DNA of 64,000 nt from assembly GCF_019112545.1 (NCBI RefSeq), contig NW_025064898.1, forward strand, positions 711,993 to 775,992. Direction: 5' to 3'. The position numbers and the translations under genes are program-made. The notes below the pieces were generated by a model, which ran no database searches, was not told where the DNA came from, and was given only the letters and a program-made list of their open reading frames with translations. Positions 1 to 42,097 of this stretch are shown one piece after another (the first letter of the stretch is position 1; the number at the start of each line of letters is the position of its first letter). The DNA comes from Guyanagaster necrorhizus (lineage: Eukaryota > Basidiomycota > Agaricomycetes > Agaricales > Physalacriaceae).

Positions 1-1640
1 TTGAAATATCTGAAGGATATTATGAGATTGAGAACAAAGAACTATTGAAAGTAGAAATACAACATGAGAAGAAGTGAAAGTTCATAAGGTTATATCAGGA
101 GAGGATCATGAAACTCTCTCAGGATGTAGGTTGGAGAATGATGCTGTTGAGAGAAGAATAGTTAACAGTAGACAATACTGAAAGAATGAATATTTTACAG
201 TATACTGTAACTGAGCAGACTATTTTTTTTAATAATAAAGCCTGCTCTGAAGACCTTCTAGTCAAACTCCTAGAATATCAGTCTCAGTTCAAGATCCAAC
301 CAATGCTGAATATGCCATCCACTTTTCTAAAGCAGGCTATGTACTCAGCACCAACTAACCAGACAGCTACCATGATCTCTACATGCTGCTGGCAACTATA
401 GACTCTGCATACCAAGGAACTGATCAGATACTCCTGGAGACTGAGAGAAAGCCAACTAATGAGGAGACAACCTCTTACTGATGAAGCTGAAATCAGCAAT
501 CAGCCAGAAGAGAATGACTCTGAAGCCACTAAACAGGAGTTCACAGTCATCAATGAGAGGATCATCAGAAAACTAGGAGAGAAAATATCTGAAAGCCTAG
601 TCACTTACAATGACTCTCTCCACTCTTTCTCCATGTCACACTAAAAGATACCATCCTTTGGCAACTACCTGAATCTAATAGAACCACTTGCTAATGACTC
701 AGTTCTTATATAATGCAAGCCAGATCTCATACAGAAACCCTATCTCTTTAAAGGGCAATCTGATGACATTAATCACTTTCTGATTGATTGTGAACAATAT
801 TTTGAGGTATATTCCACCTATCTCTCTGCTGACATTTATCAGGTCACCTTTGCCATGTTCTACTTCAAAGACAAAGCAAAGATCTGATGGATCTTAAAAA
901 GCTGAGATCTTTACTCCATGATCAGGGAGCACTATCAACTGTTATCCTGGCTGATATTCAAACAAATAGTATGTGACAAATTCATTGACTCAGCTATTTA
1001 GAAAGTCTACAAACAGAAGATGAAGAATCTTTGAATGAGAGACAAGATAGCCATCAAGTACTTTGATGAGTTCAAATGACTCACCAAACTAGTCAGACTT
1101 GTTGACCACATTGAGAATGATGGATGCCTGATAGAATATCTAAAGAACAGGGTATCTCATTCCTATATTACAATAATCATTGATATTGGTTTCAATATTC
1201 TGAAGGGATACAAAGAGTGGAAGGCATAAATCACTACAATGAACAAAGAGAGACACCAACAGAAGACAGAAAATGCCTACTGGAAGAATGATCAAAAATC
1301 CAGCAATCAAGAGAAGACTAGTATGCTGAACCCTGCTAAGTCCAATATGACTCCTTCAACTTTTACACCCATCTATTCTGCCTAGAAGACTGGGACTGGA
1401 ATCACTTATATCAGACAAGAAAAGTCTATAAAAATTAACAAATTGAAGAAAGAAAGAAAGTGTTTCAACTATAGAGAAGGATCACCTGTCACAGAATTGC
1501 CTAAAGAAAAAGTGAATCTGCAAAGACATATAGGCTCAGATTGCTGAATTGCAAAAGGAAGCCAATGGACTTAAGGAGAATGAGCAGGAGATGAAGATTG
1601 AGGAAGTGAAAGACAGAGCCAACAAGTGAATGATTTCACT
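1..1640 (+). pseudogene. A1 gag remnant
   Basis: A broken gag. The segment around 190-400 (ILQYTVTEQ ... MLNMPSTFLKQAMYSAPT) matches the same gag segment in E (about 20755-20925), A2 and G. The retrotransposon gag core lies at about 700-1250 (HFLI, EQYFEVYSTYLSADIYQ, then a KAKIWWIL-like stretch broken by TGA). The CCHC knuckle near 1461 reads CFNY instead of CFNC, so a zinc ligand is lost by TGT to TAT. There are many stops in every frame. The product would be a nucleocapsid/capsid protein; no function is expected now. Confidence 0.8.
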
Positions 1641-1796
1641 CAGTCAGTCAAAGGATTTAATAGTGTGTCTCAGAATGCTGCTGATCAGACTTATACTAGC
1701 TCTGTAGGAACTTATATACATATGCATTTGAAAATATCTGACTCTGCTATCTCAAACACACTAAAGAAATCACAAACACCTAAGACTCAACTGCCT

Positions 1797-2840
1797 TAGA
1801 TATGATCACAGGTCTTCTGGAGTGTAATGGCTATGATGCTATCATCATCATAGTTGATCAATTTTTCAAGGTGATCATCTCTATTGCATGTTCAACTGAA
1901 CTAACATCAGAAGGATGGGTGAAGATCCTTCATGATGAAGTCTACAGCAAATATGGCATGCCACAAGTGGTTATCTCAGACTGGGGCTCACAATTCATCT
2001 CTAAATTCCTAGATGACTTATACCAGCTCCTAAACATCAAACAGAATGTGTCCACAGCTTATCACCCACAGATAGATAGACAAATAGAACAAGTGAATCA
2101 AGAAGTTGAAAACTACCTTTAACTCTTTACCAATTACTGACAGGACAACTGGATGGAATAGTTGGCCCTTGCAGCTTTCCAATATAATAATCAAGTCCAC
2201 TCAGCAACTGGTAAAACACTATTCTTTATCAACTACAGTTGACACTCAAATATCACCATAACTGAATGAACCCACACCATGATCTCTGCATCCTCTGATT
2301 TTGCCACTGCTATGATAAAAATCCACAATGAAATAAAGGCTGCTCTGAAAAAAGCAGCCTTTACAATGAAAGCCCAATATGACTGTCACTGTCACCCTGC
2401 ACACATGTATGCAGTCCATGACAAGGTCTGGCTAGATACCACCAATCTTCACTTACCTAGATCAAAACATAAACTTGATAATAAATGCACTGGCTTCTTT
2501 CCCATCCTTGCAAAGGTTGGAGCCTCTGCATACCACCTTCACCTTTCAGTGCACTGGCAAATCCATAATATCTTCAATGAGTCACTGCTGACACCCTACA
2601 TTACATCTGTATTCTCAAACTAAGAACAGCCACCACCACTGCTGCTAGATCTGATCAATGATGAAGAACACTATGAAATCAATCAAATATTATACTATAA
2701 ACTTTGAAAAGTCAAAGTGTGCAGAGGTGGTATGACAATGACAGTGGATTATCTGATTAGCTGAAAGAGTTATGGCTCTGAATCTAATCAGTGGATAAAC
2801 AAAAAATGAATGAATGCAGCAGAGGCTATCTAAGACTATA
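1797..2840 (+). pseudogene. A1 integrase and chromodomain remnant
   Basis: The integrase catalytic core starts abruptly at the deletion junction (DMITGLLECNGYDAIIII). The second catalytic Asp lies in VISDWGSQF, where the usual Arg of the DRG motif is Trp (CGG to TGG). The glutamate region is DRQIEQVNQEVENYL, followed by a TAA. The C-terminal integrase region (KAQYDCHCHPAHMYAVHDKVWLD) follows at about 2370-2440. A chromodomain follows at about 2660-2840 (HYEINQILYYKL, then VDYLIS, TGA, KSYGSESNQW). The stop falls at the conserved Trp. The HHCC zinc-binding domain is missing because of the upstream deletion. Confidence 0.8.
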
Positions 2841-2890
2841 AATTATCTCTAAATTAAACTATCAGGACAATAGTCTTAAGGAGGGGGTAA

Positions 2891-3360
2891 TATTATGATT
2901 TCACCTTTATTCTATCACTTTTCCATGATTAACCCCTATTTATACTTAGTCAGGGCACCTACATGAGTGCTTAGGACTGTGAGATCAAGCTTAGTCATCA
3001 CAACTAGGCCAAGTTGGTCATTGTCTTTTGATATAACAGCATTACCTGATGATACACAATCAGTCTTTTATATACAGTAGTGATGCCCAAGGACAATGGG
3101 CACAAAGGACTCAACAACACACAATAGATAGAAGTATCAATAGCCACAGCTTGTATAGTATTTAAGGAGGCTCACTCTTGCTGGTAAAACTCCAGCTTTG
3201 AGCTAAAGTTTACTTTCACACTATTCTATACTCAAGCTGATCCTAAGGCCTTATGACACAACAATCAGAATACACATCAGTGGACTCAGCTGATCCCTCA
3301 AAGTGCAAAGGGATGACTGTTTATCATATGTTTCTGCTCATGTGATGCTTGAGTCTAACA
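2891..3360 (+). repeat. A1 3' LTR (470 bp)
   Basis: It follows the polypurine tract AAGGAGGGGG at about 2878-2887. It starts TATTATGATTTC, a G to A change from the family start TGTTATGATTTT, and ends GTCTAACA. It shares the landmarks of the G LTRs: an early AACCCCTATTTATACTTAGTCA, CTTGCTGGTAAA near the middle, and a TTTATCA(C/T)(A/G)TG motif near the end. Confidence 0.88.
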
Positions 3361-5990
3361 ATTATAGCATGTGGTAATGATCTCATCTTACAGGCCTTGA
3401 TCTCAGAGAATATAGATATGTCTATCATAGCAGATCATCCCTCCTTTCTTTGTCACTTCTTGCTTATGATTTAAAGATGAGGCCATATGTTAGTCTCACT
3501 CGCTGGTATTTCTAGTCATACTTCTGATCCATTTGTGGATCTCTTTCTCTATTAGCATTATCATAGCTCAGAAATGTTCAGTCTTTAGTAGTGTGACTCT
3601 CTTATTATCATTCTCTCCTTGATCATGATCAGCTCACTAGCTAAGAAGATTTATCTTTTTGTTTGCAGTGCCTGTCTTGTGATAAAAAGTGTACCTGTAT
3701 TAGCTTAATTCAGTTACCCACTAAGCCTGTTGGTGATTCAGTTTTTATAATTGCCAGAAGTATTGTAGATTTTAGTGGTTGGTCCATATTTCAAAGGTCT
3801 GGGCTGTGCTGATTAGATAATACCACCACTCTTCTAAGGCAAGTATAATAGCAAGCAACTCTTTATTATATATCTTATAGTTCTATTCCATTACTGTAAG
3901 AGCTTTGGATAAGAAGGCTACCAGTCACCACCTTCCATCTTGTTTCTGAGAGAGTACCACTCTAATGGCCCTCTTGCTTGAGTCAGCCTTCACATAGAAT
4001 TTTTCTTTTTGGATCAGGATGATGAGAACTATGTCTTCAGTGAGTCATTATTTCAGATCATTGAATGCTGCTTGTTGAGATTGCTCCCAAGTCTATGGCA
4101 CATTTCTGGTTAGTTGCATTATTGGTCAGACTATTTTGCTGTAGTCTCAGATGAACTAGTGGTAGAAGTTAGTGAATCTCAGAAAAGACTGGAGTTCTTT
4201 CTTCTTCATTGGTTCTAGCCACTCCATCACTCCTGTGACTTTTACTGAATCTATATGGATACTCCCTTCACTGATGATTACTCCTAAGTATTCCATCTCC
4301 AACACTTCAAATTCACATTTCTCTGCTTTGAGGAAAAGTTTGTGTTTCCTTATCAGGCTGAGGACTTGTCAAACAAGTTGCTGGTGTTCAGCATAGTCTC
4401 TCAACATAATGAGTATATCATCCAAGTAGATGGTGACTTTTCCTGTGGTGATGAGGTTGTTGAATATATCATTCATCATCTACTGGAAGGTTGTGGGAGA
4501 GTTTATTAATCTGAAGAACATGATGGTGGGCTCAAAGAGTCTCTGATTAGTTCTAAATACTGCCTTCTATTTATCTCTCTCCTTAATTTATACATTGTTA
4601 TATCTCCATCAGATATTAAGTTTTGTATAATACTTGGTCTCTCAGAGCTTGTCCATCAACTCCAAGATGAAAGGGAGTGGATGCTAATTCTTGATGGTCA
4701 TTTTGTTAAGCTTCTGATAATCCTGAACCAGTCAGAGTTTGCTATCCTTCTTCTTGATAAAAAAGAAGGAGGATGCCATCAGTGATTTCAACAGTCAGAT
4801 ATGCCCACTGAAGAGGTTCTCTTTTAGAAACTTGTTGAGTTCCTGTTGCTTGTGATGACCAAGTGGGTATATCTTGCAATCAAGATTAGCATTTGTATTG
4901 AGAACTAATTCAATAGCATGGTCCTATAGTTTTGGTTCCAGCAATTCATTGAAGCTTTCCTTTTCAAACAGATCTCAGTAATCTTGTGCCCATTCTGGCA
5001 CCAACTCTTTGAATGTCTTTTCTTCCTTTTTTGTGTTTGCCCTCACCACTAGGTCATTTGTATGGTGCATGGTATGGAGGTGTAATGCCAGCTGGATGTC
5101 AATGGCAAGGATGGTTTCTCTATCTTCTATTTTCTTATCTCATCAATCTTCAGAGTTCTCATCAGATAACTCAAATGAAATTTTCCAGTATTTGCAACAT
5201 GCAAAAGTGATTCTGCCAGTCTTCCTGTTAACTAAGAGATTGTAGTGAATTAATCAGTTATAGTCTAAGAATATCTCTTTGGTTCCTAGATCAGTTACTG
5301 CCAGATCAATCCATTCAGAGTGATCCTCAATCATTAGCCTTAGTTTGATGAATTCAATAATCAAACTGGCTTGATTTTTTGTGCTATCAGCATTGTACAT
5401 GAGGATAGGGGCCATCATGGCTCAAGTGGAAAGTTGGTGCTTGTCAATGAAAGCTCAGTTTATAGAACTGCCAGTACACCCACTGTTGATCAGAGCAGTG
5501 ATAGTATGGGTGGCTCAGTTGATCAAGATCTTGATTTGGGCCTTGGTGATCAAATCTTGTTCCAGAGTTTTGATTCATCAGACATATTATCAGAGTCTGT
5601 GGAGTTCATCAAGTCACTCTAAGGCCTGACATCATTCTGTCTTCTTCATCCTTTTGACTATTTCATCTATAACTTCCTCAGCTCAGATCCTGTATATCCA
5701 ATTTTTGAGTATGGCCTTTGCTGCTTCTTCCATTGGTGCTTTCTTGATGGCTCATCAGGTCCATTCAGTGTTGAATAGCTTGAGCCATTTATTGAGGATC
5801 TCTCCTTCTGTTCAGCCTGTAGGCATTTGAGCTTTTTCTCTAGATGATTCTTTGGCAGGGTACACAGTAGTTGATGCAGGTATATTCAAATGCATGCATA
5901 ATTTAGACATATTTATATCTACAAAGAGGCTATTAGTCCATCCTGCAGCTATGTTTGCTGTCCTGCTAGATTCTTTGGCTGACCCAGTGG
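3361..5990 (-). pseudogene. A2 protease-RT-RNase H-integrase remnant
   Basis: Read on the minus strand, about 5990-5650 is the gag end/protease linker and the protease lies around 5560-5380 (ALINSGCTGSSINWAF-like, active-site Asp changed to Asn). RT runs about 4990-4160 and keeps an intact catalytic YLDDIL (Asp-Asp codons at 4417-4422), followed by the KHKLFLKAEKCEFEVLEMEY motif. RNase H occupies about 4110-3700. The integrase N-terminus (CYDR, IYILxDQG, TCHxHA region) runs to 3361, where A1 cuts it. Stops occur throughout. Plus-strand open frames here at about 4172-4396, 5009-5245 and 5371-5629 are antisense shadows of this pol. Confidence 0.78.
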
Positions 5991-6204
5991 AATTGCTCAC
6001 TGGTTGGCCTCCTCTTTTACCTCTTCAACTTTCATCTCTGCTCCAAGTGCTTTTTCTTTTCTCTGGAGATTGGCAATCTGCATCTGGCTGTCTTCTTATG
6101 TTCTCTTCTTCTTTCAGAAATCCTTCAATATGTGGTCTTTTTGTCTGCAATTAAAACACTTTCCTTTCTTTTTCAGGCAGTTGATGTCTATTGGTTTGCC
6201 AGAC
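5990..6204 (-). pseudogene. A2 gag 3' segment with degenerate CCHC knuckle
   Basis: The minus strand gives a knuckle of the form KCFNCRQKDHILKDF around 6120-6170. The first two Cys and the His are kept, and the last Cys is replaced by Phe. The segment ends at 6204 with CAGAC, directly against the B1 LTR. The rest of gag resumes at 11096 on the far side of B1. Confidence 0.8.
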
Positions 6205-6704
6205 TGTTATGTGCATGCCACCAGCCTCCATATCACCTCAACTAACCACAGATTCAATCATTAAAACCCACTGAACTCTGCCTACTTTCCATTACCTATT
6301 AATTTCATTTTCACTATTATCATTTCACATCTGTATTTCACATTGTAATATCTAGACCCTAAACTCAGTAGTGAATATTGACATCAGAATCCAATAGAAC
6401 TCAACTTAGAATTAGCTACCATTAGTATATAAAGCCATGTATAATCATTGTAACTACTCAGTTCAAATATTAACTTGAATAGTCATCTACACTTTATACT
6501 TGCTTTAACTTCTTCTTACCTCATCCATTAGATTTCACTCTGAAGAATACTCCTCTTTGCTTCTCTGATGGAACTCTATTCTGTCCATTCAAATCCTTAG
6601 ACTCTGACTCAAGAGTGACATTTCCAATAGCTTTGTTGACACCCATGCACTCTGCTGATCTCTACACATGCACTCAAACCCACTTGATTAGCATATTCCT
6701 AACA
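6205..6704 (+). repeat. B1 5' LTR (500 bp)
   Basis: Starts TGTTATGTGCATGCC and ends TTCCTAACA. It has almost no similarity to the family A LTR beyond the TGTTA/TAACA ends. The sequence directly after it (GTATATTTGAACTCAAACCC) is shared with B2 and is the presumed primer-binding region. It does not begin with TGG. Confidence 0.88.
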
Positions 6705-6749
6705 GTATATTTGAACTCAAACCCTTGAGTCAAAAATTTCTATCATGTC

Positions 6750-7799
6750 CACCACATTTATCCAACCCATAGAGACTGATCCCAAAAAAACCTAGCCTAC
6801 TCATCACAATATGTTTTCTATGGAAGACATTCTAGCCTCCATCTCAAAGAAACAATCAGACCTTTTCAGATCAGCTTCCAGTGGAGAACAACCTTCCAAT
6901 AGAGAAACCTACAATCACTTTAGCTTTACTGCTCACCAACCTAATTAGAATGATTTCCCTAACTCTTTTAATGCCACCAGCATTCTAACTAATGGAGGAG
7001 CCTGATGGACCAGCCTGATATATAGTGCTTGAATTGATCCTCTGATAGACTCCTTATTCTTGGGCAACATACATGGGAATTCAGACAGCTCAGACTCAGG
7101 GGGCAAAGATGAAGACACCCCCACCTATACTCCCATCTGATGGGAACCAGATGGGAACCCTCCAAACCCTTTTTCAGGAGAGTCAGGAGGACCAGATAGA
7201 CCAGAAGGACTAGGCAGTCCTAATAGCTCAGGAAGCTCTGACAGCCCTACAGGAAGCAACAATCTAAACCAGCAGGACATGTTCTTAGAGTTCATAAACC
7301 TGTTACAAGAAGTCTCCACTTCTCTCAATAACCCTAAACCAGCCACTATCCACACTAAAGTCAAGGAACTAGAACCATTTGACAGCTCTTACTCTCACAA
7401 ACTGAAGGTCTTCATCATCTCCCTATAGTTAAACTTCAATGACAGATCTACCACATTTGCAACAGATGCTAGCAAGGGCAACTATACCATTTCCTTTTTA
7501 GCCAGCATCACACTTAACTGGTTTGAATCAAGTATTCTTAACTCCAATCCACAGAGTCCACCAGTCTGGCAATTCTCCTGTGGCTTTCTTAGATGAGCTT
7601 CATAGCAACTTCAGCCTTTTTGACACCATCTACCACCCTTAAGCCCTATGCTGACAAGCTAGACAAAGATGGCCATCTTACTCAGGAAGAAAAAGACCAC
7701 TGGCACCAGAACAACCTTTACATATTCTGTGGAGCCAAACACAAGACTGAGGATTGCAACAAGTGGAAGGCAGCAGCCTCTGTCAAAGATCATGCAGCT
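6750..7799 (+). pseudogene. B1 gag remnant
   Basis: Broken gag of family B. The visible order is: a leader (MEDILASISKKQSDLF near 6811), a Gly/Pro/Ser-rich linker (GGPDRPEGLGSPNSSGSS near 7190-7240), a gag core (VKELEPFDSSYSHKLKVFI near 7361-7420, then NYTISFLASITLNWFES), and a knuckle region around 7690-7770 (KDHWHQNNLYIFCGAKHKTEDCNKW). This knuckle is typical of MarY1-like mushroom gypsy elements. Stops and frame changes interrupt it, and it ends at the internal deletion. Confidence 0.8.
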
Positions 7800-9300
7800 G
7801 TCTGTGCAACCTATCTTGAGGGCCCTACCCTATGGGCTAGTGCTATTATGGATATTGACAAACTTCATACTGATATTAAACAAGCACAATTCTCTAATCC
7901 TATATCCTCTAATGGCCTTTATCAGGCCAAGGCCACTTCTGAATTCTCTCCCTCTCAGTAGTCTATTGATGAATCCAACATCCTTCACTTTGAAGGCCAC
8001 ATCTATGTTCTGGACTCTGATGATCTCCATCTTCATATACTTCAAAACAATCATGACCATATCTTGGCAGGCTACTTTGATCAAAACCAGACATCAGAGC
8101 TACTCCAATGGAACTATATCTGGCTAAAGATGCATGAATATGTTTGACACTATATTAAGTTCTGCACAGTTTGTAGATGCAATAAGACACCTACACACTG
8201 CCCCTATGAGTTACTCAAACCTCCACCAGTTTCTGAATAGCTATGAAATTCCATTTCCATGGATTTTATTGAACAACTATCAGACTTCAATAGATTTACC
8301 ACCATTCTAGTAGTTGTTGACTGGGCTAGCAAGCAAGCCATCTTCATTCCCACTTATGACATCATTAACTTTATGAAGCTCACTCAACTTTTTCTTATTC
8401 ATATCTTCTCTAAACATAGAGTACCCAGTCATATCACCTCAGATTGCAGCTCTGACTTTATTTCTCAATTTACTCATGCCTTAGTCATAGCTCTTGATAT
8501 GAAACTCCATCTTACTTCTGGTTACCATCCAGAGGCTGACAGACAAACTGAATGAGCAAACCAAACTCTGAAGCAGTACATCTGCATCTACTGCTCTTAT
8601 CAACAGGACAACTGAGACACCCTTCTATCTATTGCTAAGTTCACCTACAACAATGCTCCTAATGCATCCACCAGAATTTTCCTATTTTTTGCTAACAAGG
8701 GTTATCACCCCAATATCACCATTCACTCTGAAAAGGATATCACCTCTGCTTGGGCCTGAGACTTTGCAGTTAACCTTGACAAACTCCATTAAATATTGAA
8801 GGATAAAATTTCTGAAGCTCAGTCTCATTACAAGGCTCAAATAGACAAGCATTAGATTCCAGTGCCTCTGTTCACAGTGGGCAACAAGATCTACCTCAGT
8901 TCTAAACATATTAAAACCACTCATCCAACCAGAAAATTCTCAGAGAAATACCTTGGTCCTTTCAAAATCATAGCCCAATCTGATTTCCACTCCTTCATGC
9001 TGAGGCTTCTGCTGGATTTCCAGTCCATTCACCTGGTCTTTCATGTGTCACAATTAGAATCTATAGAAGAAAACATCATTTCTAACTGAATTCAACCACC
9101 ACCACCTCCAGTCAAAGTCAATAGAGAAGAACATTTCAAAATAGCCTAAATCCTCAACTCTAAACTGGATCACTGGTTCTGCTGCTTATTGCTGTACAAG
9201 ATCCAGTGGCTAGGCTACAAAGGTACCAATGAAGAATTTGCTTGGCTACCAGCCTCTGAGTTTCCCACTGATGAATTTATCAAAGAATTCCATCATTAAT
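7800..9300 (+). pseudogene. B1 integrase and chromodomain remnant
   Basis: The piece begins just upstream of integrase (IMDIDKLHTDIKQAQ, then LQNNHDHILAGYFDQNQT). The HHCC domain has YIKFCTVCRCNKTP. The core has SMDFIEQLSDFNRFTTILVV (first Asp), HITSDCSSDFISQF (second Asp; DRGS has become DCSS) and GYHPEADRQTE followed by TGA (catalytic Glu region). The C-terminus has VPLFTVGNKIYLSSKHIKT. A degraded chromodomain follows at about 9120-9300 (KIQWLGYKGTNEEFAWLPAS). Chromodomains steer integration towards marked chromatin in this class. Confidence 0.83.
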
Positions 9301-9609
9301 ACTCAGACAAACCAGGGCCCTTATCCAAAGTTACTCAATCATTCTGTTCTTGATACAATGCTATTCTGGATGCCACCAGCACCCCACCTTACTATTTCAA
9401 TTCTAACCACTGACTACTATTTCAATCACTCTTTTTACACTTTCAAAGTCAAAATCTTGTATTTACATTTTTTTTTCTCTACTACCAACATCCAATGCTT
9501 TTTTCTATATACATTCCATACAAAATCTTTACAAGAAAGCAGAATCTGAACTCTCTCTCTGCCTCTTCAACTCCTCTATATCCTTATTCAGCCTCTTCAA
9601 CATCACCTC

Positions 9610-10450
9610 TCACAGATCTTCTACCTTCTGATCCTTCTTGTTCTTGAAAAGCAGATGAGTCTTCTTCCAGACCTCTAATTCAGACTCCAAAAACAACTCT
9701 GAGAGAGACAACATATCATCTGACTCATAATCATCCTGGAGACCTACTACAGTACTATGGACATCTGCTATCTCATCTGCCAACTTATCTATGTGATGCA
9801 TCAATTTGGATATTAACTTTGAAAGTTGGTGAAGACCAGTAGAGACCTTCACACTGCTGATCACCTCACTTTCAGTGACACCTTTGTTGAACAAACAGGC
9901 AGTCTTCATAACCTTGCAACAGGCACAAGTCTGCCCATAGCTGGCACCTTCAGTTACCAGGTATGCATAACAGGGTGCATTATCTTGACAGCAGCATATG
10001 CAACTCTCTGAAAACAGAACTAAGATGAGCCAACCAGAAACAATAAGACACTTACTTTCACTGCTCAATTCCTCCTTGCCCTCAACCAGCTCCACAACCT
10101 CCAACTCCATCCTTTTCTTGAGACTGGCCACTACCTGTGTCTCACTGTTATCCACTATACTCCTTGTGCCTCCTCCACCTCTTTCACTCATCTCTCTGCT
10201 GCCAGACCTCCTCCCTCTTCTTCTCTAACCCCTCTTGCTGCTTCTTTCTCTATGCCTTCCAGGCAATATAGTCCATCTGGACCTTCTCCTCTCTCTCCTG
10301 CTCCTTTTTCCACTCCAAGTGGACTTTCATGGCCTTTATGTACTCTTCCTCCATGGTTTGTCATTCCAGATAGAATAATTCTTTGGCCTCTTCAGGGCCA
10401 TTGGAGGTGGGTTCCCTCACCAAAGGCTCAGGAGTGTATAAGCAATGATA
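9610..10450 (-). pseudogene. Antisense intron-bearing gene carried by B1
   Basis: Opposite to gag-pol, between the chromodomain and the 3' LTR. The minus strand reads first a Lys/Glu/Arg-rich part (10450-10200: EWKKEQEREEKVQMDYIAW, broken by single stops), then GGGTRSIVDNSETQVVASLK and KELSSE-like text. Next is an intron with GTAAGT...TTTTCAG ends (10008-10055, 48 bp, phase 1). After it comes a Cys cluster (SCICCCQDNAPC, then TCACCKVMKTAC) whose spacing can be read as C-x2-C-x6-C ... C-x2-C-x6-C, and then a coiled-coil tail (LHQLSKLISKLMHHIDKLAD). The exon-2 frame is open to 9610. B2 has the same gene with the same intron. Similar K/E-rich plus Cys-cluster proteins occur in mushroom genomes as far as I recall, but I cannot name a function. 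A zinc-binding, possibly DNA-binding, role is inference. Confidence 0.65.
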
Positions 10451-10606
10451 TGCAGTGAGAGGCAACATAGTTGCAAAAGTTTAGACAATAGTGGTAGTAT
10501 CTGATCAAGTTGCAAAATTTTCCATGGCCACCAACAATCTTCCATATGACTCCACTGGCCATCAGGATCTGTGCTCTTGAGGGCAAGAATGCTAACAGGG
10601 AGATAC

Positions 10607-11095
10607 TGTTATGCACATGCTGCTGGCCTCCATGTCACTTTAACCAACTATGAATTCAATCACTAAAACCCACCAGACTCTATTACCTATTAATTTCATT
10701 TTCACTATTATCATTTCACATTTGTATTTCACATTGTAATATCTAGACCCCAAACTCAGTAGTGAATATTAACATCAGAACCTAATGGAACCCAACTTAG
10801 AATTAGCTACCATTAGTATATAAAGCCATGTATAATCATTGTAACTACTCAGTTCAAATATTAACTTGAATAGCCATCTACACTTTATACTTGCTTCAAC
10901 TTCTCCTTACCTCATCTGTTAGATTTCACTCTGAAGAATACTCCTCTTTGCTTCTCTGATGGAACTCCATTCTGTTCATCTAAATCCTTAGGCCCTGACT
11001 CAAGAGTGACATTGCCAATAGCTTTGTTGATGCTTATACACTCTGCTGGTCTTCACACATGCACTCAAATCCACTTGATTAGCATATTTCTAATA
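10607..11095 (+). repeat. B1 3' LTR (489 bp)
   Basis: Starts TGTTATGCACATGC and ends TTTCTAATA (TAACA with one C to T). It is preceded by a short purine tract (AACAGGGAGATA). It aligns along its whole length with 6205-6704 with many transitions, for example GTGCATGCC against GCACATGCT at the start. Confidence 0.87.
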
Positions 11096-29400: not shown

Positions 29401-30480
29401 TTCATCACTATGGACTCATATTTCAGTGGATATGATAACCAGACTTCCCAAAAGTGATGGCTATGATGCAATCATTGTCATAGTCAATTGCTTCTCAAAG
29501 ACAATCATTCTGATTGCCTGTTTGACAGAATTAACATCAGAAGGATGGGTGAAAATTCTATAGGATGAGGTTTATGCAAAGTATGGCATGCCTTAAGTAG
29601 TGATTTCAGACAGAGGACCATAATTCATCTCTAAGTTCTTAGATGACTTGTACCAACTCCTCAACATCAAATAAAATGCCTCAATGGCATATCATCCTCA
29701 GACAGATGGCCAAATGGAGTGGGTGAACTAAAAAATAGAAAAGTATCTCTGACTTTTCATCAATTACCAATAAGATGATTGGACTGAATGGCTAGCTTTA
29801 GCTGCCTTCCAACACAACAACAGAGTTCACTCAGCAACTAGCAAAACACCTTTCTTTGTCAACTATAGGTGAAACCCACCAGTCACACAAAGCAAATGGG
29901 TATACACAATGATACTGGCATTAACAGATTTTGCAATAACAATGGCAAAGATTCATGAAAAAACAAAGACAGCCCTCAAAAAAGCTGTGTCAACCATGAA
30001 GAAACAGTACGATAAGCATCAGTGATCCACCTATAATTATTCAATCAATGACAAGATTTGGCTGGACACAACCAACTTGCACCTTCCATACTCAAAACAG
30101 AAGTTAGCAGACAAGCAAACAGGACCATTCAAAGTCATCACCAAAATTGGCAACTCCACATACAAGTTGCAATTACCAGCAACTTAGAAAGTTTATAATA
30201 TCTTCAATGAGACATTATTAACACCATATATCGCATTGGCCTTTCTAAATCAGAAATGACCACCTCTACCATCACCAGAACTTATCAACAATGAGAAACA
30301 TTATAAAATTAATGAAATACTAAACTACAAAATATAAAAGGTTAAAGCATGAGGCAGAGGCATGACAACAACCATTGACTATCTAGTCAGCTGAAAGGGC
30401 TATGGATCTGAGTCAAACCAATGGGTCAATGAGAAATATATGGATGCCAAGAAAGTGATACACAACTATGAACAGCAAAA
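26500..30480 (+). pseudogene. F pol: protease, RT, RNase H, integrase, chromodomain
   Basis: Protease near 27090-27400 has INSGCTRSSIN, the active Asp changed to Asn. RT runs about 27610-28440: IELIPNANANLDCKYYPLS, KLDIQWGYNNVHIKE, then the catalytic box YLDNIL at 28157-28171, where the second Asp is Asn. RNase H at about 28500-28960 shows EADSSEDAIGAVL, KKLLAIM, TDHQNL and NKKADFLSH. Integrase at about 29000-30240 has HDHTTARHP ... CEVYQCSKS (HHCC), SVDMITRL (first Asp), ISDRGPX (second Asp) and DGQMEWVN (Glu). The chromodomain at about 30290-30480 (HYKINEIL, IDYLVS, TGA, KGYGSESNQW) has a stop at its conserved Trp. Confidence 0.85.
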
Positions 30481-33038: not shown

Positions 33039-33536
33039 TGTTAGGAACAGGCTAATTGATTAGGTTTGAGTGCATGCATAGAGACCAGCAGAGTGTAGGG
33101 GCATTAACAAAGCTATTAGCAATATCACCCTTGAGTCAAAGTCTAAGGATATGGATTGACAGAATGGAGTTCCATTAGAAAAGTGAAGAGAAATATCCTT
33201 CAGAGTGAAATCCAACAGATGAGGTAGAGAGAAGCTGAAGTGAGCATGAAGTGTAGGTGGCTTATCCAAGTTGATATTTGAACTGAGTAATTATAATGCT
33301 TATATGTGGTTTATATACTATTAATAGTTAATTCTGAGTCAGAGCCTGTTAGATTCTGATGTCAGCTGTTTGCTACTATATTCAAAGTCTAGATACTGGA
33401 ATGTGAAATACAGATGTGAAATGATAATGGTAAAATGAAATTGGTAGATAATAGAAAGTGGTAGAGTCCAGTGAGTCTTGTGATTGACTTTATTATTAGT
33501 TGAAGTGATGCAGAGGCTGGCAGCATGTGCATAACA
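33039..33536 (-). repeat. B2 3' LTR (498 bp)
   Basis: On the plus strand it runs from TGTTAGGAACAGG to GTGCATAACA; the minus-strand start is TGTTATGCACATGC. The minus-strand purine tract AATGGGGGAATA precedes it (33537-33550). It aligns with the B1 LTRs and with 39983-40475. Confidence 0.9.
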
Positions 33537-33789
33537 GTATTCCCCCATTAGCATTCTTGCCATTAAGAGTACAGATTCTGATGCCCAGTGAGAGGCATAT
33601 AGTGAAAAAAATTTTATTCTATGGGAATTTTATCTTTCAGTTTTTAACCACCATCTTCTTCAGCTTGCAACAATATCATCTCTCACCACTTATTGCCATT
33701 CAAAAACTCCTGATCCTTTAGTGCAGAAATTCATCCCTGATGGCCTTTAAGAGACTAAAGAATTATTTCATTTAGAATGTCAAACTGTA

Positions 33790-34990
33790 AAGGATGAGTA
33801 TATAGAAGCTGTGGAGGTTCATTTAGAATAGAAGAGAGAGCAGGAGAAGGAGGAGAAGGCCTAGGCAGACTGTGTAGTCCAGAAGGTACAGAAAAGAGAG
33901 CAGAAGGAGGAATTGGAAAAAAAGAGAGAGAAGGTCTGGCAGACAGCAAAAAAGCATATAAAGAAGGAGAAGAAAGCTTGAAAGGAAGCTATAGAGAGGG
34001 AGGCTGCACAGGAGGTAGCTCAACAAGAGACTTTGGAGAAGGAGACTGTAGAAGCTGCAGTGAGAGAGATGGCAACCAGAGGTGCACCACCAAGAAAGTT
34101 GGTGATAAAGAGTGGGTTGCAAATGATCTCTATAGAGGCTATTGATTTTTAACTGCATCAAGTTCTAGCAGAATAGTTCAGTCCTAGTCTTAGTCTTTAT
34201 TTTAAAAGGGTGACTAGTTGTATGCCTCTGAAGTCTGATGATAAGCAGAACAAGAAGACTAAGAGAGATAAAGTTGGAAGAATCTGAGAGAATCCTAAAG
34301 AGGGAAAAGAGTGTGTGAGAGGGGAAGAGGAGGGCAGCAGATCTAGTGTTAAGAGGTGAGAAGCAGAAGTTCAAATCTCATAGCATGGTGGATGATAGTG
34401 AGGCAGAAATGGTAGTTAGCTCTAAGAAGAGGGCAAAGTTGGAGATTGCAGGACTAGCAGAGAGTGAAGAGGAGTTAATTGGTGAAAGTAAGTGTCTTTT
34501 TGTTTCTGATTGATTCTGACTTAGTTTTGTTTTCAGGAAGTTGCATATGCTGTTGCCAAGATAGCATATATTATTATGTATGCTTGACAACCAAAGATGC
34601 TGGTCATGGATGGACTTGTGCTCATTGCAAGATTAAGAAGACTGTTTGTTCATTTAATAAGGATGTCACTATAAGTGAGGTGGTTAGTAGCATAAAGGTC
34701 TCTGCCAGCCTTCAGAGACTTTTAAAATTAATATGCAAGTTGATGCATTATATAGACAAGTTAGTGGACAAGGTGGTGGATGTCCATAATACTGTAGCAG
34801 ATCTTCAGAATGACTACAGGTCTGATAATATGTCATCTCCTTTGGAGTTGTTTTCAGAGTCTGAGTTAGAGACATGAAGGGAGACTCATCTGATCTTCAA
34901 GGATGAGAAGGATCAGGATCAGGAGAACTTGCAGATGGTGATGCTAAAAAGACTGAATAAGAATGTAGAGAAGTTGAGGAAGTGAGAAGA
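33790..34990 (+). pseudogene. Antisense intron-bearing gene carried by B2
   Basis: Plus strand, opposite to B2 pol, between integrase and the 3' LTR. It has a very Lys/Glu/Arg-rich first part (33830-34080, for example KREQKEELEKKERERR) and a second Arg/Lys/Asp part. Exon 1 ends ELIGE at 34487. An intron follows at 34488-34536 (49 bp, GTAAGTG...TTTTCAG, phase 1). The Cys cluster is SCICCCQDS ... TCAHCKIKKTVC. The tail is heptad-like (LQRLLKLICKLMHYIDKLVDK, then DNMSSPLELFSESELET). Exon order, intron position and intron ends equal those in B1. The first zinc half has lost one Cys (TGT to TAT), while a Cys further along replaces a Tyr of B1. Stops in the first part indicate decay. Function unknown. 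Confidence 0.65.
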
Positions 34991-37990
34991 AGGCTTGAGT
35001 TCTAGTGTGGGTCCATTGAGTGCTGAGCTCTTATGATTGTAGACAAAAATTTCTTGTAGTATAAAGTGTATATAGAAAGTGTTAGAGTGAAGGAGTGGAA
35101 ACCAGGTTGGACTATGATTTCAAAAGGACCAAGGTATTTCTTGGAGAATTTTCTGATCAGACAGATAGTTTTGATATGTTTGGAACTGAGATAAACCTTG
35201 TCACCCACTGTAAATGGAGGCACTGGAATCTAATGCTTGTCTGCTTAGATCTTATAGCAAGTCTGAACTTCAGAAATTTCATCTTTTAATACTTAATAGA
35301 GCTCATCAAGGTTGACTGCAAAGTTTCAGATCTGAGTGGAGACAATGTCTCCTTCAGGATGAATGGTGATATTAAGGTGATAATTCTTGTTAGCAAAGAA
35401 TGGGAAAATTCTAGTAGATGTGTTAGAGGCATTGTTGTAGGCAAATTCAGCAATAAGTAAGAGAGTATCCCAGTTGTCCTGTTGGTAGAAGCAGTAGATG
35501 CAGATGTATTGTTCTAGAGTTTGGTTTACTCATTTAGTTTGTCTATTAGTCTCTGGATGGTAGCTGAAAGTGAGATGGAGTTTTATATCAAGGGCAATAC
35601 CTAGAGTATGAGTGAACTGAGAAACAAATTCAGAGCCATGATTAAAGATGATATGACTGGGTACTCTATGTTTGGAGAAGATATGAGTGAGAAAAAGCTA
35701 GGCAAGCTCTATAGAGTTGATGGTGTCATGAGTGGGAATGAAGATGGCTTGCTTGCTAGTCCAGTCAATAATTACTAAAATAGCAGTAAATCTATTGGAA
35801 TCCAGTAATTGTTCAATAAAATCCATAGAAATAGAGTCCTATGGCCATTCAGAAACTGATAGAGGTTTGAATAGCCTATAGAGGTGGTGTCTGGGTGTCT
35901 TATTGCATTTACAAACTGTGCAGGACTTAATATAGTGTCAAACATATTCATGCATCTTTGGCCAAATGTAATTCCACCAGACTAGCTCTAATGTCTGATT
36001 TTGACCAAAGTAGCCTGCCAAGATATAGTCATGATTGTTCTGTAGTATACAGAGATAGAGATCATCAGAGTCTGGGATATAAATATGGCCTTCAAAGTAA
36101 AGGATGTTATATTCATCAATAGACCACTGAGAGAAAGAGAATTCAAAAGTGGCCTTGGCCTGGCAAAGGCCATTGGAAAATATAGGGCCAGAGGATTATG
36201 CTTGTTTGATATCAGTGTAGAGTTTATCAATATCCATGATGGCACTAGCTCATAGAGTAGAGCCTTTGAGGTAGGTTGCATAGAGTGATGCAGAAAGTTG
36301 TTTTTGGGTAAACACAGGTCAGAAATTGTGGGAATTGACTTGGATGTATTGGCTATCTCTCTCTTTAGGGTAGATATCCTATCATCTAGTGAGTGTATCT
36401 GGTTTTCTGCCAAGTTTTCTAGGGTGGAATCAGATTACTAAGTTGAACTGAGATAGGTATTCAGACTAGCAGACCTGTCAGTGAGTCAGAATCTTGGTGA
36501 TAGCAAAGTATTCAAGATTCTTGTAGTCTGTTATAATATTGATGGAGTCTGTGGAGCCTTCAAAGTAGTGCTGCCAATGTTTGAAAGCTTCAAAAATGGC
36601 CAGAAGCTTCTTGTCATAGGTGTCATAGTTGAGTTTGGCATTATGGAGACTTCAGGAGCAGAAAGCAATAGGATGAATTTTGCCATCTTTGAGATAAATA
36701 GAGAGGATGGCTGCAATAGCATAGTCAGAGGCATTGGTCTCCTCCACTATTCATTGATTAAAGATCCAGTGAGTAAGGATGAAAGTGTGTGTAAAGACCT
36801 GTTTCAACTTGTTGAAGACAGCTAAGCATTTATTATTAAATTTCTATGGAATTCTTTTGTGAGTGAGTCATATAAGGGAAATAATGAGATAGAATATAGC
36901 CTAAGTATTTCACAGAGTCTCAGTTGAATTTGCATTTAGAGCCTTTGCAGTAGAGTTCATTAGCTCTAAGCCTGTGTAGAACTTCACAAACATGTTTCTG
37001 ATGATCTTCTGGATTGTTGGAATATATAAGAATGTCATCAAGATAGACTACTATTGATATGTTGAGCATGTCAGAATATATCATTCACAAAAAGTTGGAA
37101 TACCACTAAAGTATTTGTAAGGCCAAAAGGCATGATATGCCATTCAAAGGAACTATAACAGATTTAGAAGGCTGTTTTCCATTCATTTTCTTTAGCTATG
37201 TGAACAAGATGGTAGACATGTCAAAGGTTGAGCTTAATGTAAATGCATGCAGAGTGAGTGGAGTCAAAGAGATCAGAAATGGGAGAAAGAGGATAGCAGT
37301 TCTTCCTAGAGATTTTATTCAGACTGTGATAGTCAATGCAAAGTCAGAGTTGACTGGTCTTTTTCTTGACAAACAGGACTGGAGCCTCATGCAGAGAGTG
37401 AAATGGAGTAATAAACCTGTTATACAAATTATCATCAATAAACTCTCATAGAGCTTTGAGTTCAGATTCTGAGAGAGAATAAATAGGTCTAAGCAGTAGA
37501 GATGTTCCTTCCTCAAGGTTGATTTTGAGATCATATGGCCTGTGTTTGGATAGCTTTTTAGAGAGGATATTACTGAAGATGTCTGCAAAATTGTGATACT
37601 CTACTGGCACTGATAAAAGATCTGCCAGTTCTATAGATGCAGCTTTAGCTCTAATATTAGGCAAGGAATACTACAGTGTGAACTGCTGAGTGCCTTCTTC
37701 TGCACTGGCTCAGACAAATGCAGCAGCAGATATGATGGAGATCTTTAGATGTGCTTTCATAATAGACTCTGAGAAAGAATAGAAATAAATGGATTCATAT
37801 GGAAATAGAGTCTGCCAGCATCCTGAAGCAGATTTGGAATGGCATGAAGCCTCAGAGATTAAACTGATAGAGTCTAATGGGTACAGAAGTCCCAGAATTG
37901 AGCTAGAAGGCTCAAAGAGGGATGGACTGTTGTTTTATGGGCACAAAAGTCCTAGGGATGCAGTGGAGGCTGCAGAATTAGTTGGAGTGA
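34990..37990 (-). pseudogene. B2 RT, RNase H and integrase
   Basis: Minus-strand reading. RT starts near 37664 with VEYHNFADIFSNILSKKLSK, PYDLKINLEEG and LLRPIYSLSE. Its catalytic box YLDDIL is intact (Asp-Asp codons at 37034-37039). RNase H lies at about 36830-36430. The pre-integrase region (ILINSTLISNKHNPLALYF is out of frame; in frame IMDIDKLYTDIKQA) is near 36240. The HHCC and core regions run 36000-35300. The C-terminal part (PPFTVGDKVYLSSKHIKT at about 35220-35165) ends soon after HSFTLTL. There the sequence jumps to text equal to the post-chromodomain region of B1, so the chromodomain is deleted. Confidence 0.8.
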
Positions 37991-39982
37991 GATTCTGGTA
38001 GCTTGAGTGGAAAGTGATACTGTTTTCAGTCCAGTCAATCAGTGGATTGTAGCAGAAGAGCCAGTTGTATCCTAGGATAAGATTGCAAGATGAATTCAGA
38101 TGAGTGACATAAAAGTTGATGGGAAAGATGTCTCTAGAAGGAAAACAGATAGGGATAATTGCAATTTGAGATATACAGCTTCTGACAAAGCCATCAAATA
38201 ATCAGAGTTGCACACTAGGGATGGTTTTAATAGAAATATCATTGGCAGCTACATACTTAGTGTCAACAAAGCAGTGGCTAGAATCAGAATCAATAAAAGC
38301 AAGAAAACACAGAATGGCAGAAGCTGGGGATCTATCAGACTTCATACTAGTTAGTAATTCTGCTAAAAGTGGAAGATAGAAAGATTGATTGGAAACAGAT
38401 GTTGCATTGAGAGTGATGACCTCTGATGTGCAAATAGAGTCAATGCAATCCTGAACTCACATAGAGAGAACAGAGTTGCTTCCTAGTTTTCCAACTTGGT
38501 TGGAGCCAGTTCCTTGAGAGCAGTGTCTATTTTAGCTGCATGACTCTTGGCAGAGGCTATAGTCTTCTATTTGTTGCAATTCTCAGTCTTGTTCTTGGCT
38601 CTACAGAATATGCAAAGGTTGTTCTGGTGCCAGCAGTCTTTTTCTTTCTGAGTAAGATAGCTATCTTTGCCTAGCATGTTGGTATAAGGCTTAGAGGTGA
38701 TAGATTTCAGTGTGGAGCTGGAGTCTGAGGAAGAAGAGTTAGACCCCTTGGATTTGAGGTTAGAGGATTAGTTGGAGGTCTTATTATCTCAATTTTCACA
38801 GGCAATTTTGGTCTTTCAGGTCCAGTAGTGAGCATCAAGTTCTTAGGCAAGAAAGTGCATATTATAGAGGTTGTTTGGCTTTCTATGGTAGGCCATATTA
38901 TCCTTGATGTGAGTGCAGAGACTATGGTAAAAGGCATAGCAGAGGAAGTTATCTCTATATCCAATTTATGAGGCATACTGATTGAATTAGACCATATACT
39001 TTATGATCTGGTCTCTATCATGCATCTGAATGTGTTCTAATGCATCTTTGGCATCTCCAATGGTGTTGAAGAGGCCAAAGTTGCTACAAAGCTTATTCAA
39101 GAAAGCTATATAGGAGAATTGCCAGGCTGGTGGATTCTGTGGATTGGAGTTAAGAATGTCTGATTCAAACTAGTTAAGTGCAATGCCAGCCAGAAAAGAG
39201 ATGGCATAGTTAATCTTGTTAGTATCCATTGTGAACACAAGGTCTGTCATTGAAGTTTAACTAAAGAGAGATGATGAAGACCTTCAGTTTGTGAGAGTCA
39301 AAGCCATCAAAGGGTTCTGGTTTCTTGACTTTAGTATAGATAGTGGCTGGCTTAGGGTCATTGAGAGAAGCAGAGACTTCTTGTAACAGATTCATAAATT
39401 CTAGAAACATGTCCTGCTAGTTTGGATTGCTGCTTTCTGTGGAGCCACTGGAGTCACCTGAGCTATTGAAACTATCTGATCCTTCTGATTCACCTGGCCC
39501 TCCTGGCCCTTCTAAAAAGGAATTTGATGGGTTACCACCTCCTGTCAGACAGAAGTATGAGTAAGAGTGTCTTTATCTCTGCCCTCTAAGTCTAGGCTGT
39601 CTGAATTCTCATGCATATTGCCTAGGGATAAGGAGTCTATCATAGAGTCACTTTGAATGCTGTATATTATGCTGGCCCATCAGGCTCTGTTGGTTGAGAT
39701 GCTAATAGCATCAAAAGAGTTAAGAGAATTATCATAATTTGGTTGGTAGGCAGTAAAGCTAGAGTGGGTGTAGATTTCCCTATGGGAAGGTTATCCTCCA
39801 CTAGAGGCTGACCTGAAGAGCCCTGGTTGTTCTTTTGAGGTGAAGGCCAGAATGCCTTCTATAGAGAACATGCTGGAATGGCTGGGTTGAGTTTGTTTGG
39901 AGTTGGCTTCTCTGAGTTGAGCAAATGTGGTGGACATAATAAAAAATTTCTTTTTGACTCAAGGGTTTGAGTTTGAATATAC
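37990..39982 (-). pseudogene. B2 gag and protease
   Basis: Minus-strand reading. The gag leader is around 39940-39600, followed by a Gly/Pro/Ser-rich linker (SGDSSGSTESSNPN is approximate, near 39470-39430). The core lies around 39370-39000, and the knuckle near 38640-38580 reads CWHQNNLCIFCRAKNKTENC. Protease near 38330-38240 reads AFIDSDSSHCFVDTKY, where the Gly of DSG is Asp. The spacing equals the B1 gag. Many TGA/TAG/TAA stops. Confidence 0.77.
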
Positions 39983-40475
39983 TATTAGGAACATACTAAT
40001 TGATTGGGTTTGAGTGCATGCACAGAGACTAACAGAGCATATGAGCATCAATGAAGCTATTGGCAATATCATTCTTAGTCAAGGCTCAGGAATATAGATT
40101 GACAAAACAGAGTTTCATTGAGGAAGTGAAGAGAGATATCCGTTAGAGTGGAATCTGACAGACAAGGTAGAGAGAAGCTGAAATAAGCATGAAGTGTAGG
40201 TGGCTTATCTAAGTTGATATTCAAACTGAGTAATTATAATGCTTGTATATGGTTTATATACTATCAGTAGTTAATTCTGAGTTGGAGTCTATTAGATTCC
40301 AGTGTCAGCTGTTCACTACTATATTTAGAGTCTAGATACTAGAATGTGAAATACAGATATGAAATAATAATGATAAAATAAAATTGGTAGGTAATAGGAA
40401 GTGACAGAGTCTGATGAGTCTTATGGCTTCATCATTGGTTGAGGTGACACAGAGACTGATGGCATGCACATAACA
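39983..40475 (-). repeat. B2 5' LTR (493 bp)
   Basis: On the plus strand it runs from TATTAGGAACATAC to GCACATAACA. The minus-strand end TAATA is TAACA with C to T, and the minus-strand start is TGTTATGTGCATGCC. The primer-site region below it (minus strand GTATATTCAAACTCAAACCC) matches that of B1. Confidence 0.9.
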
Positions 40476-41645: not shown

Positions 41646-42097
41646 TGTTATGATTTTCTCTTCTTTCCTTATTTTTAACCCTTATTTATGCTTAGTCAAG
41701 GCATCAAGAACAAGTGCTTAGAACTGTGAGAAGGCTTAGTCATTATAACAGGCTGACTTTGTTATAGTTCTTTGATGCAACTGATGTCTAATGACAAATG
41801 CACAATCAGCCTTTTAGTAATGACATTCAAGGACAAAGAGCATCCAGAACAGAGAAACACACAATAAGTACAAGTATTAATAGCAAACCATATACTGTAT
41901 TTAAGAAGGCTCGCTCTTGCTGGTAAATCCCCAGCTTTGAGCTAAAGTTTATTCACATCATTCTACTCTTGAGCCAACTCTTTAGCCTTATGACACAATG
42001 ACTGTAAATCACATCAGTGAACTCAGATAACTATCCAAAGTGTGAGGTAGCTTCTGTTTATCATGTGGTTTCACTTACATGATGCTTAGGTCTAACA
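41646..42097 (+). repeat. G 5' LTR (452 bp)
   Basis: Starts TGTTATGATTTTCTC and ends GGTCTAACA, followed by the primer-site region ATTAGCTTGAAGCTTCC. It has a TATTTAAGAAGGCTCGCTCTTGC area near 41898-41920, which is a TATA-like stretch followed by the family-wide block CTTGCTGGTAAA. Confidence 0.93.

What the first reader, a model, noticed from the sequence alone, without database searches (positions are those of the whole stretch)
9610..10450. Retrotransposon B1 carries an antisense gene with a spliceosomal intron and a Cys cluster
Between the chromodomain and the 3' LTR, on the strand opposite to gag-pol, is a gene with a K/E-rich segment, a GT-AG intron (10008-10055) and a Cys cluster that can be read as C-x2-C-x6-C ... 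C-x2-C-x6-C (Zn2Cys6-like, linker 14), plus a coiled-coil tail. A sense intron would be removed during retrotransposition. An antisense intron is invisible in the genomic RNA, so its presence in two copies suggests a true transcription unit with its own promoter, probably captured from the host. The product could act on the element (regulation, chromatin) or on the host.
Basis: partly seen in the sequence, partly recalled or inferred. Interest (0 to 1): 0.88.

Follow-up and report, generated by a model that had tools for sequence, protein, structure and literature searches.

The report
Backwards spliced gene inside fungal retrotransposon
A large family of fungal LTR retrotransposons carries an extra protein gene that runs backwards relative to its other genes, keeps a short intron, and shows signs of having been kept by natural selection, which suggests that the element uses the protein.

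Summary
On the minus strand, between chromodomain and 3' LTR, the window copy has a two-exon gene: ATG 10466-10468, exon 1 10056-10468, intron 10008-10055, exon 2 9610-10007 with CX2CX6C-X14-CX2CX6C. This copy is broken: stops, 374 nt of exon 1 missing, protease-RT-RNase H lost. The family is better preserved.

The host genome has at least 150 matches to exon 2. The intron sits at one place in 79 of 81 copies compared; its length varies, GT/AG hardly; the other two have deletions, none shows clean intron loss. Eleven of 77 copies keep an open spliced frame over 440 codons. In 40 less decayed copies this frame alone of six has a significant excess of silent changes on internal branches (dN/dS 0.50, p 0.0003; terminal 1.03; contrast p 0.05).

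Several relatives per species exist in Armillaria; an unnamed relative has a 16-residue insert at the intron site. A divergent chromovirus here has the same arrangement.

Best reading: a spliced antisense accessory gene of a Ty3 chromovirus, probably for a nuclear zinc-cluster-like DNA-binding protein. Function is inferred; host capture is not shown. Antisense accessory genes are known (Grande, Boty); this is a new variant.

The parts
6203..6702 (+). 5' LTR of the window copy (B1)
   Evidence: 500-nt direct repeat, 88.4% identical to 10605-11093
6703..7798 (+). gag-side remnant of B1; protease, reverse transcriptase and most of RNase H are missing after it
   Evidence: alignment to L049: 6205-7623 matches 638-2016, 7628-7798 matches 2365-2535, then jumps to 4932; frames of L049
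7805..9530 (+). integrase and chromodomain part of B1 (SH3/chromodomain piece at 8760-9296); end approximate
   Evidence: alignment to L049; protein match C19:720752-721288; domains in relatives
9610..10007 (-). antisense gene, exon 2: CX2CX6C-X14-CX2CX6C and coiled-coil tail; ends at a stop at 9610-9612, homology runs on to about 9529
   Evidence: translation; conserved in copies
10008..10055 (-). GT-AG intron, 48 nt, phase 1
   Evidence: same place in 79 of 81 copies
10056..10468 (-). antisense gene, exon 1, K/E-rich, from ATG 10466-10468; in-frame stops and a net 374-nt deletion at 10166/10200 in this copy
   Evidence: spliced frame of relative L072 is 428 codons
10605..11093 (+). 3' LTR of B1, just upstream of the antisense gene
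33039..40475 (-). second, near full-length but decayed copy (B2) with LTRs about 33039-33527 and 40042-40475
   Evidence: alignment to L049
33690..34487 (+). B2 antisense exon 1 (start approximate), decayed
34488..34536 (+). B2 intron, 49 nt
34537..35037 (+). B2 antisense exon 2 (end approximate), with in-frame stops; third Cys position is Tyr

Best explanation
The feature is a decayed copy of a spliced antisense accessory gene that belongs to a Ty3/Gypsy chromovirus-type family. In less decayed copies the gene starts a short way inside the 3' LTR, runs against gag-pol, has two exons and one short intron, and encodes about 428 residues: a K/E-rich part, basic stretches that look like nuclear localisation signals, a six-cysteine cluster and a coiled coil. 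Shown: position, strand, intron conservation, conserved cysteines, purifying selection in this frame on internal branches, and relatives in Armillaria and in a divergent chromovirus of the same genome. Inferred: the gene is transcribed from the 3' LTR region and spliced; the intron persists because the sense genomic RNA carries only its reverse complement, which the spliceosome does not cut; the protein enters the nucleus, pairs through the coiled coil and binds DNA through the zinc cluster, acting in trans on the element's own transcription or silencing.
For: 150 exon-2 matches. 118 of 150 have a listed chromodomain match within 3 kb downstream, all 118 on the opposite strand, median gap 240 nt. 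72 of 79 fetched loci contain a chromodomain piece, 71 on the opposite strand; of the 7 others, 3 read N there. Intron at one place in 79 of 81 copies, GT in 80 and 81 of 81, AG in 80 and 78 of 81. Open spliced frame over 440 codons, stop to stop, in 11 of 77. In 40 less decayed copies the six Cys are kept in 40, 40, 40, 39, 40, 39. Selection, same 40: without CpG-context changes dN/dS 0.50 on internal branches (silent excess p 0.00026) and 1.03 on terminal ones; transversions only 0.40 (p 0.023) and 0.36 (p 0.0025); no other frame reaches p 0.05 for a silent excess. With 42 copies (two old ones added) 0.60 against 1.08, Fisher p 0.0023, and 0.43 against 0.87, p 0.0017. Relatives: 2 among 7994 scored candidates, then 25 among 2052, the query included; 43% identity over 218 residues; P0017 has 16 extra residues at the junction. 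L096: chromodomain on +, long-form relative on -, with a 53-nt GT-AG segment, seen by eye, at the same junction.
Against: No RNA evidence could be had. Three of four chromodomain copies checked that had no listed exon 2 lack the whole gene, and two of these share one deletion junction at different sites, so the gene is probably not needed in cis. Pfam Zn_clus is far below its cut-off (8.6 of 21 bits on the Cys piece, no hit with the whole protein). AlphaFold gave low confidence for the cluster (pLDDT about 36-51). The contrast between internal and terminal branches is weak once L027 and L029, which only look young because of their neighbours, are left out: p 0.05 without CpG-context changes, none with transversions (p 1.0). 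Frame -1 comes nearest (0.72, p 0.057). In the 42-copy set frame +2 also falls from 1.70 to 0.90 with transversions; exon 1 alone gives p 0.06 and exon-2 transversions p 0.38. With all 75 copies and transitions included it is 0.81 against 1.02 and frame -1 is 0.83. Copies were picked by similarity, not at random.
Confidence: 0.6

Rival explanations
1. The antisense transcript itself is what matters: it pairs with the genomic RNA and makes double-stranded RNA for silencing or self-limitation, and the reading frame is secondary.
For: Discussed for plant antisense ORFs in the passages read of PMC7264820. The geometry would give such RNA.
Against: Silent changes are in excess in this one frame and cysteines are kept; 43% protein identity to an Armillaria protein. 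Does not explain an intron kept at one place.
Confidence: 0.16
2. A host transcription-factor-like gene was captured once and is carried as a passenger.
For: Intron and zinc-cluster-like protein look like a cellular gene.
Against: No locus inspected was clearly outside an element, though not all matches were inspected; a divergent chromovirus has the gene at the same place; silent excess on internal branches. Ancient capture is not excluded.
Confidence: 0.14
3. The family is a host or domesticated gene family in Armillaria, and the retrotransposon versions are derived from it.
For: Armillaria proteins are annotated as ordinary genes.
Against: A. ostoyae has eight of them in the list, 55-82% identical to P0001, as could be expected of mobile copies; their DNA context could not be read here.
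Confidence: 0.06
4. The reading frame and splice sites are chance features of a decayed repeat.
For: The window copy is broken and its intron is open and a multiple of three.
Against: Conservation across copies and relatives.
Confidence: 0.02

Closest known systems
[quoted passage not shown]
   Same: Same place, same antisense direction, in most copies; Grande's product is nuclear and its transcription has its own promoter (PMC7264820 passages).
   Different: Plant elements; TRP28 and SMC-like domains are named there, and no six-Cys cluster appears in the passages seen; the word intron does not occur in PMC7264820. Retand is not a chromovirus (start of the abstract of PMC11963269 in a listing).
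Boty / BcGypsy1 antisense gene brtn (Botrytis cinerea)
   Same: A fungal Gypsy element with an extra antisense gene (cited in PMC7264820 and PMC8365987, passages).
   Different: Ascomycete; the original paper (Zhao 2011) was not read, so introns and sequence were not compared.
HBZ of HTLV-1
   Same: Antisense-encoded nuclear protein of a retroelement (PMC11963269 passages); its splicing and bZIP nature are recalled.
   Different: Retrovirus; not a zinc cluster. No relationship claimed.
Fungal Zn2Cys6 (Gal4-type) transcription factors, PF00172
   Same: CX2CX6C-X14-CX2CX6C followed by a coiled coil; UniRef names three relatives (P0002, P0005, P0026) Zn(2)-C6 fungal-type.
   Different: Pfam score below cut-off; the basic CSRCKIKK half comes second, whereas it comes first in Gal4-type proteins (recalled).
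Armillaria multi-copy proteins (ARMOST_04143 and others)
   Same: Same six-Cys cluster, coiled coil and K/E-rich start; 43% identity over 218 residues.
   Different: Longer, with an extra C-terminal part of about 150 residues that this family lacks but L096 and L097 have in part.

Membership tests
Ty3/Gypsy chromovirus | LTRs with capsid, protease, RT, RNase H, integrase in Gypsy order | tested here: met
   L049: Ty3_capsid, RVP_2, RVT_1, RT_RNaseH, Integrase_H2C2 above cut-off; rve below it (29.5 of 32.6). No RT tree was made.
Ty3/Gypsy chromovirus | Chromodomain after integrase | tested here: inconclusive
   Pfam Chromo E 0.00023 over 51 of 53 positions, but 21.5 bits is below the cut-off of 25.1; Clr4 and MPP8 chromodomains in the PDB, E 0.0004. 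Taken here as a chromodomain.
[quoted passage not shown]
   118 of 150 and 71 of 79; deletion derivatives exist
Antisense accessory ORF class (aORF-3R) | Antisense transcription | not testable with these tools
   no RNA data held
Spliceosomal intron | GT-AG, branch-like CTNA, pyrimidine tract, fixed position, length free of the frame | tested here: met
   the branch-like motif is by eye
Spliceosomal intron | Spliced RNA | not testable with these tools
   only indirect: 16-residue insert in P0017 at the junction
Fungal Zn2Cys6 binuclear cluster (PF00172) | Six Cys with canonical spacing | tested here: met
Fungal Zn2Cys6 binuclear cluster (PF00172) | Score above the curated cut-off | tested here: not met
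   8.6 of 21 bits; of 8 relatives only P0026 is listed, 12.9 of 21
Fungal Zn2Cys6 binuclear cluster (PF00172) | Folded cluster that binds zinc and DNA | tested here: inconclusive
   AlphaFold low confidence there
Boty brtn | Sequence homology | not tested
   brtn sequence not at hand

The most novel reading that the evidence does not exclude
Chromoviruses of mushroom-forming fungi carry an old, intron-bearing antisense gene whose zinc-cluster protein counters the host's CpG methylation of the element, in the manner of plant transposon anti-silencing proteins (recalled), acting in trans so that deletion derivatives can be helped. The host here has lost CpG from repeats almost completely, and less decayed LTRs hold several CGG/CCG triplets (no control computed, a few loci counted twice), the kind of site Gal4-type clusters bind (recalled).
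Probability: 0.15. Interest if true: 0.82.

Novelty: new variant of a known kind. Interest (0 to 1): 0.57.

Why it matters
Retrotransposons normally lose introns each time they move. An antisense gene escapes this, and here the intron marks a separate transcription unit that has persisted across element families and apparently genera. It gives a clear case for asking what antisense accessory genes do, a question still open for the plant elements, in fungi where RNA-seq and DNA-binding assays are simple. It may also explain a set of multi-copy 'hypothetical' Armillaria proteins.

Tried and rejected
Chance frame: rejected. Read-through of the intron as coding sequence: possible in the 48-nt copies, rejected for the family because lengths of 49, 50, 52, 53 and 56 occur while the 47-nt start of exon 2 keeps its length in 75 of 79 loci. 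Host single-copy source gene: a search with the Armillaria C-terminal part gave 2 matches, a search with a P0026 part 147 matches from 150 scored of 204; only L096 and L097 were read, and they lie by a chromodomain and an LTR-like stretch; several other places that are not were not inspected. Structure: two AlphaFold jobs were uninformative for the cluster, so no fold search was run. A search with the Cys region alone found nothing (0 of 386 candidates); the PDB gave one weak coiled-coil match, E 1.5. NCBIfam gave no match near a cut-off. Antisense TATA: a TTTATATA on the antisense strand of the LTR is more simply the sense TATA box (by eye), so no promoter is claimed. CGG triplets in the LTR were listed without a control. 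Selection test on 42 copies: two of them (L027, L029) had passed the CpG filter through neighbouring sequence; the test was repeated without them and the weaker result is reported. Literature: the listings of searches showed no paper describing this gene; only open PMC papers are held and listings were capped.

Full report
What is in the window. The element called B1 has LTRs at 6203-6702 and 10605-11093, 88.4% identical over the repeat. Compared with a longer copy, L049, it keeps the gag side, lacks protease, RT and most of RNase H, and resumes at integrase and chromodomain. Between chromodomain and 3' LTR, on the minus strand, lies the gene of the finding: ATG at 10466-10468, exon 1 to 10056, intron 10008-10055, exon 2 from 10007 to a stop at 9610-9612. 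This copy has in-frame stops and a net 374-nt deletion in exon 1. The second copy, B2, at about 33039-40475 on the other strand, is near full length but decayed; its intron is 34488-34536.

Decay in this genome. The first 48 kb of the window have CpG observed/expected of 0.00-0.07, the last 12 kb 0.93-1.02. Repeats have therefore lost nearly all CpG, which makes stop codons and biases any rate test; CpG-context changes were left out below.

The family. A protein search with exon 2 scored 150 of 281 candidates and all 150 matched; exon 1 gave 152 matches from 149 scored of 326. 118 of the 150 exon-2 matches have a listed chromodomain match within 3 kb downstream, always on the opposite strand, median gap 240 nt; 32 have none in a list that was itself cut at 150 of 1929 candidates. 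Of 79 fetched loci, 72 contain a chromodomain piece, 71 of them in the opposite direction; of the 7 without, 3 (L060, L061, L072) read N there, and 4 (L022, L028, L031, L059) have other sequence or were not looked at further.

The intron. Anchoring on the exons and not on splice motifs, 79 of 81 copies (79 loci and two window copies) have 45-56 nt between the exons; L031 and L034 have deletions. GT is kept in 80 and 81, AG in 80 and 78 of 81. By motif, lengths 48, 49, 50, 51, 52, 53, 54 and 56 occur, the longer ones through a T run before the acceptor, while the first 47 nt of exon 2 keep their length in 75 of 79 loci. So the segment is free of the frame and bounded by splice signals. No copy of the 81 shows a clean loss, as expected if the element's RNA carries it only as the reverse complement.

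The protein. 11 of 77 loci have a spliced frame over 440 codons, counted from stop to stop. In L072 the frame from ATG is 428 codons, with junction phase 1. It has a K/E-rich part, basic stretches (such as KGRKRKF and PKKRAKLE), the six cysteines and a helical tail; in the exon-2 model residues 51-94 and 107-152 are helices, while the Cys part has low confidence. In 40 less decayed copies the six cysteines are present in 40, 40, 40, 39, 40 and 39. Pfam Zn_clus is not met, although UniRef names three relatives Zn(2)-C6 fungal-type. The half that resembles the start of a Gal4-type cluster (CSRCKIKK) is here the second half; that comparison is from memory.

Selection. 75 of 79 spliced copies covered more than 85% of the frame. 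A first test used the 42 whose locus had CpG observed/expected above 0.35: without CpG-context changes N/S was 203/141 on internal and 563/259 on terminal branches, dN/dS 0.60 and 1.08 against a spectrum-matched expectation, Fisher p 0.0023; transversions only 69/39 and 103/22, 0.43 and 0.87, p 0.0017; 20 bootstrap trees gave 0.55-0.68 and 0.90-1.06. On checking, two of the 42 (L027, L029) are old copies that passed because of their neighbours. Without them, 40 copies give 60/49 internal (0.50, silent excess p 0.00026) and 373/199 terminal (1.03), contrast p 0.05; transversions 16/10 (0.40, p 0.023) and 24/15 (0.36, p 0.0025), no contrast. In that set no other frame has a silent excess at p 0.05; frame -1 comes nearest (0.72, p 0.057). 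So the silent excess in this frame is well supported, and the contrast between internal and terminal branches is weaker than it first looked. Other results that weaken it: with all 75 copies and transitions included, 0.81 against 1.02, and frame -1 is 0.83; all 75 copies by transversions, 0.64 against 1.00, p 0.005; in the 42-copy set frame +2 falls from 1.70 to 0.90 by transversions, exon 1 alone gives p 0.06 (0.006 by transversions), exon 2 0.42 against 1.09, p 0.006, but 0.16 against 0.27, p 0.38 by transversions. The copies were best matches, not a random sample.

Relatives. The full protein found two Armillaria proteins. The part 215-500 of P0001 found 25 including itself; the 23 that carry a name are from Armillaria ostoyae, solidipes, borealis or novae-zelandiae, eight of them from A. 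ostoyae, and P0008 and P0017 carry none. P0001 shares the cluster and coiled coil with this family (43% over 218 residues) and has an extra C-terminal part. P0017 has 16 extra residues exactly at the exon junction, the length of a 48-nt intron read through, and P0006, P0009, P0015 and P0019 miss residues there, as wrongly chosen acceptors would give (inference). In the same genome L096 carries a chromodomain piece on + (60% identical over 106 residues) and, on -, a decayed long-form relative, its Cys cluster largely lost, with a 53-nt GT-AG segment, seen by eye, at the same junction; L097 has a long-form relative beside a stretch 70% like the family's LTR. The antisense gene is therefore probably older than this family. 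Whether the Armillaria genes lie in elements could not be read.

Elements without it. Of four chromodomain copies checked, out of 32 without a listed exon 2, three (L092, L093, L094) have lost the whole gene and L095 has lost exon 2. L092 and L094 share one junction with a short microhomology but sit at different places; L093 has another junction. This suggests loss by template switching and at least one later move without the gene, so the product is probably not needed in cis.

Mechanism. Most likely, by analogy with HBZ and Grande gene23 and from the order cluster-linker-coiled coil, the product is a nuclear dimeric DNA-binding factor that acts in trans on the element. This is inference. An RNA-level role is possible alongside but does not explain the silent excess.

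Known or new. [quoted passage not shown] PMC11963269; PMC8365987). In PMC5408684, on extra ORFs in bdelloid rotifer elements, the passages found hold no antisense gene and the word intron does not occur. What differs here is the conserved intron, the six-Cys protein, the selection evidence and, if the kinship to Armillaria holds, the presence in basidiomycete chromoviruses. No paper on it was seen in the listings of searches. The host species was not identified; kinship to Armillaria is a guess from the hits.

Noticed in passing
window 1-64000: CpG observed/expected is 0.00-0.07 up to about 48 kb and 0.93-1.02 from 52 kb on: a sharp boundary between a repeat block and a part with normal CpG, with near-total CpG loss in repeats.
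   Followed up: partly
L092, L093, L094: Elements with chromodomain and LTR but without the antisense gene; L092 and L094 share one deletion junction with microhomology at two sites.
   Followed up: partly
L096 and L097: Divergent relatives of the antisense gene with the Armillaria-type C-terminal part; L096 lies beside a chromodomain of another family.
   Followed up: partly
window 2062-2679, 3054-3364, 29692-30310, 41801-41977: Stretches that match the flanks of L049 outside its LTRs: other repeats that recur beside these elements.
   Followed up: no
L027 and L029: Old copies whose loci show CpG observed/expected above 0.6 because they lie beside less decayed sequence, including in L029 an integrase frame that runs in the direction of the antisense gene.
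   Followed up: partly
window 53409-55868: 819-codon open frame on the minus strand in the part with normal CpG; not identified.
   Followed up: no
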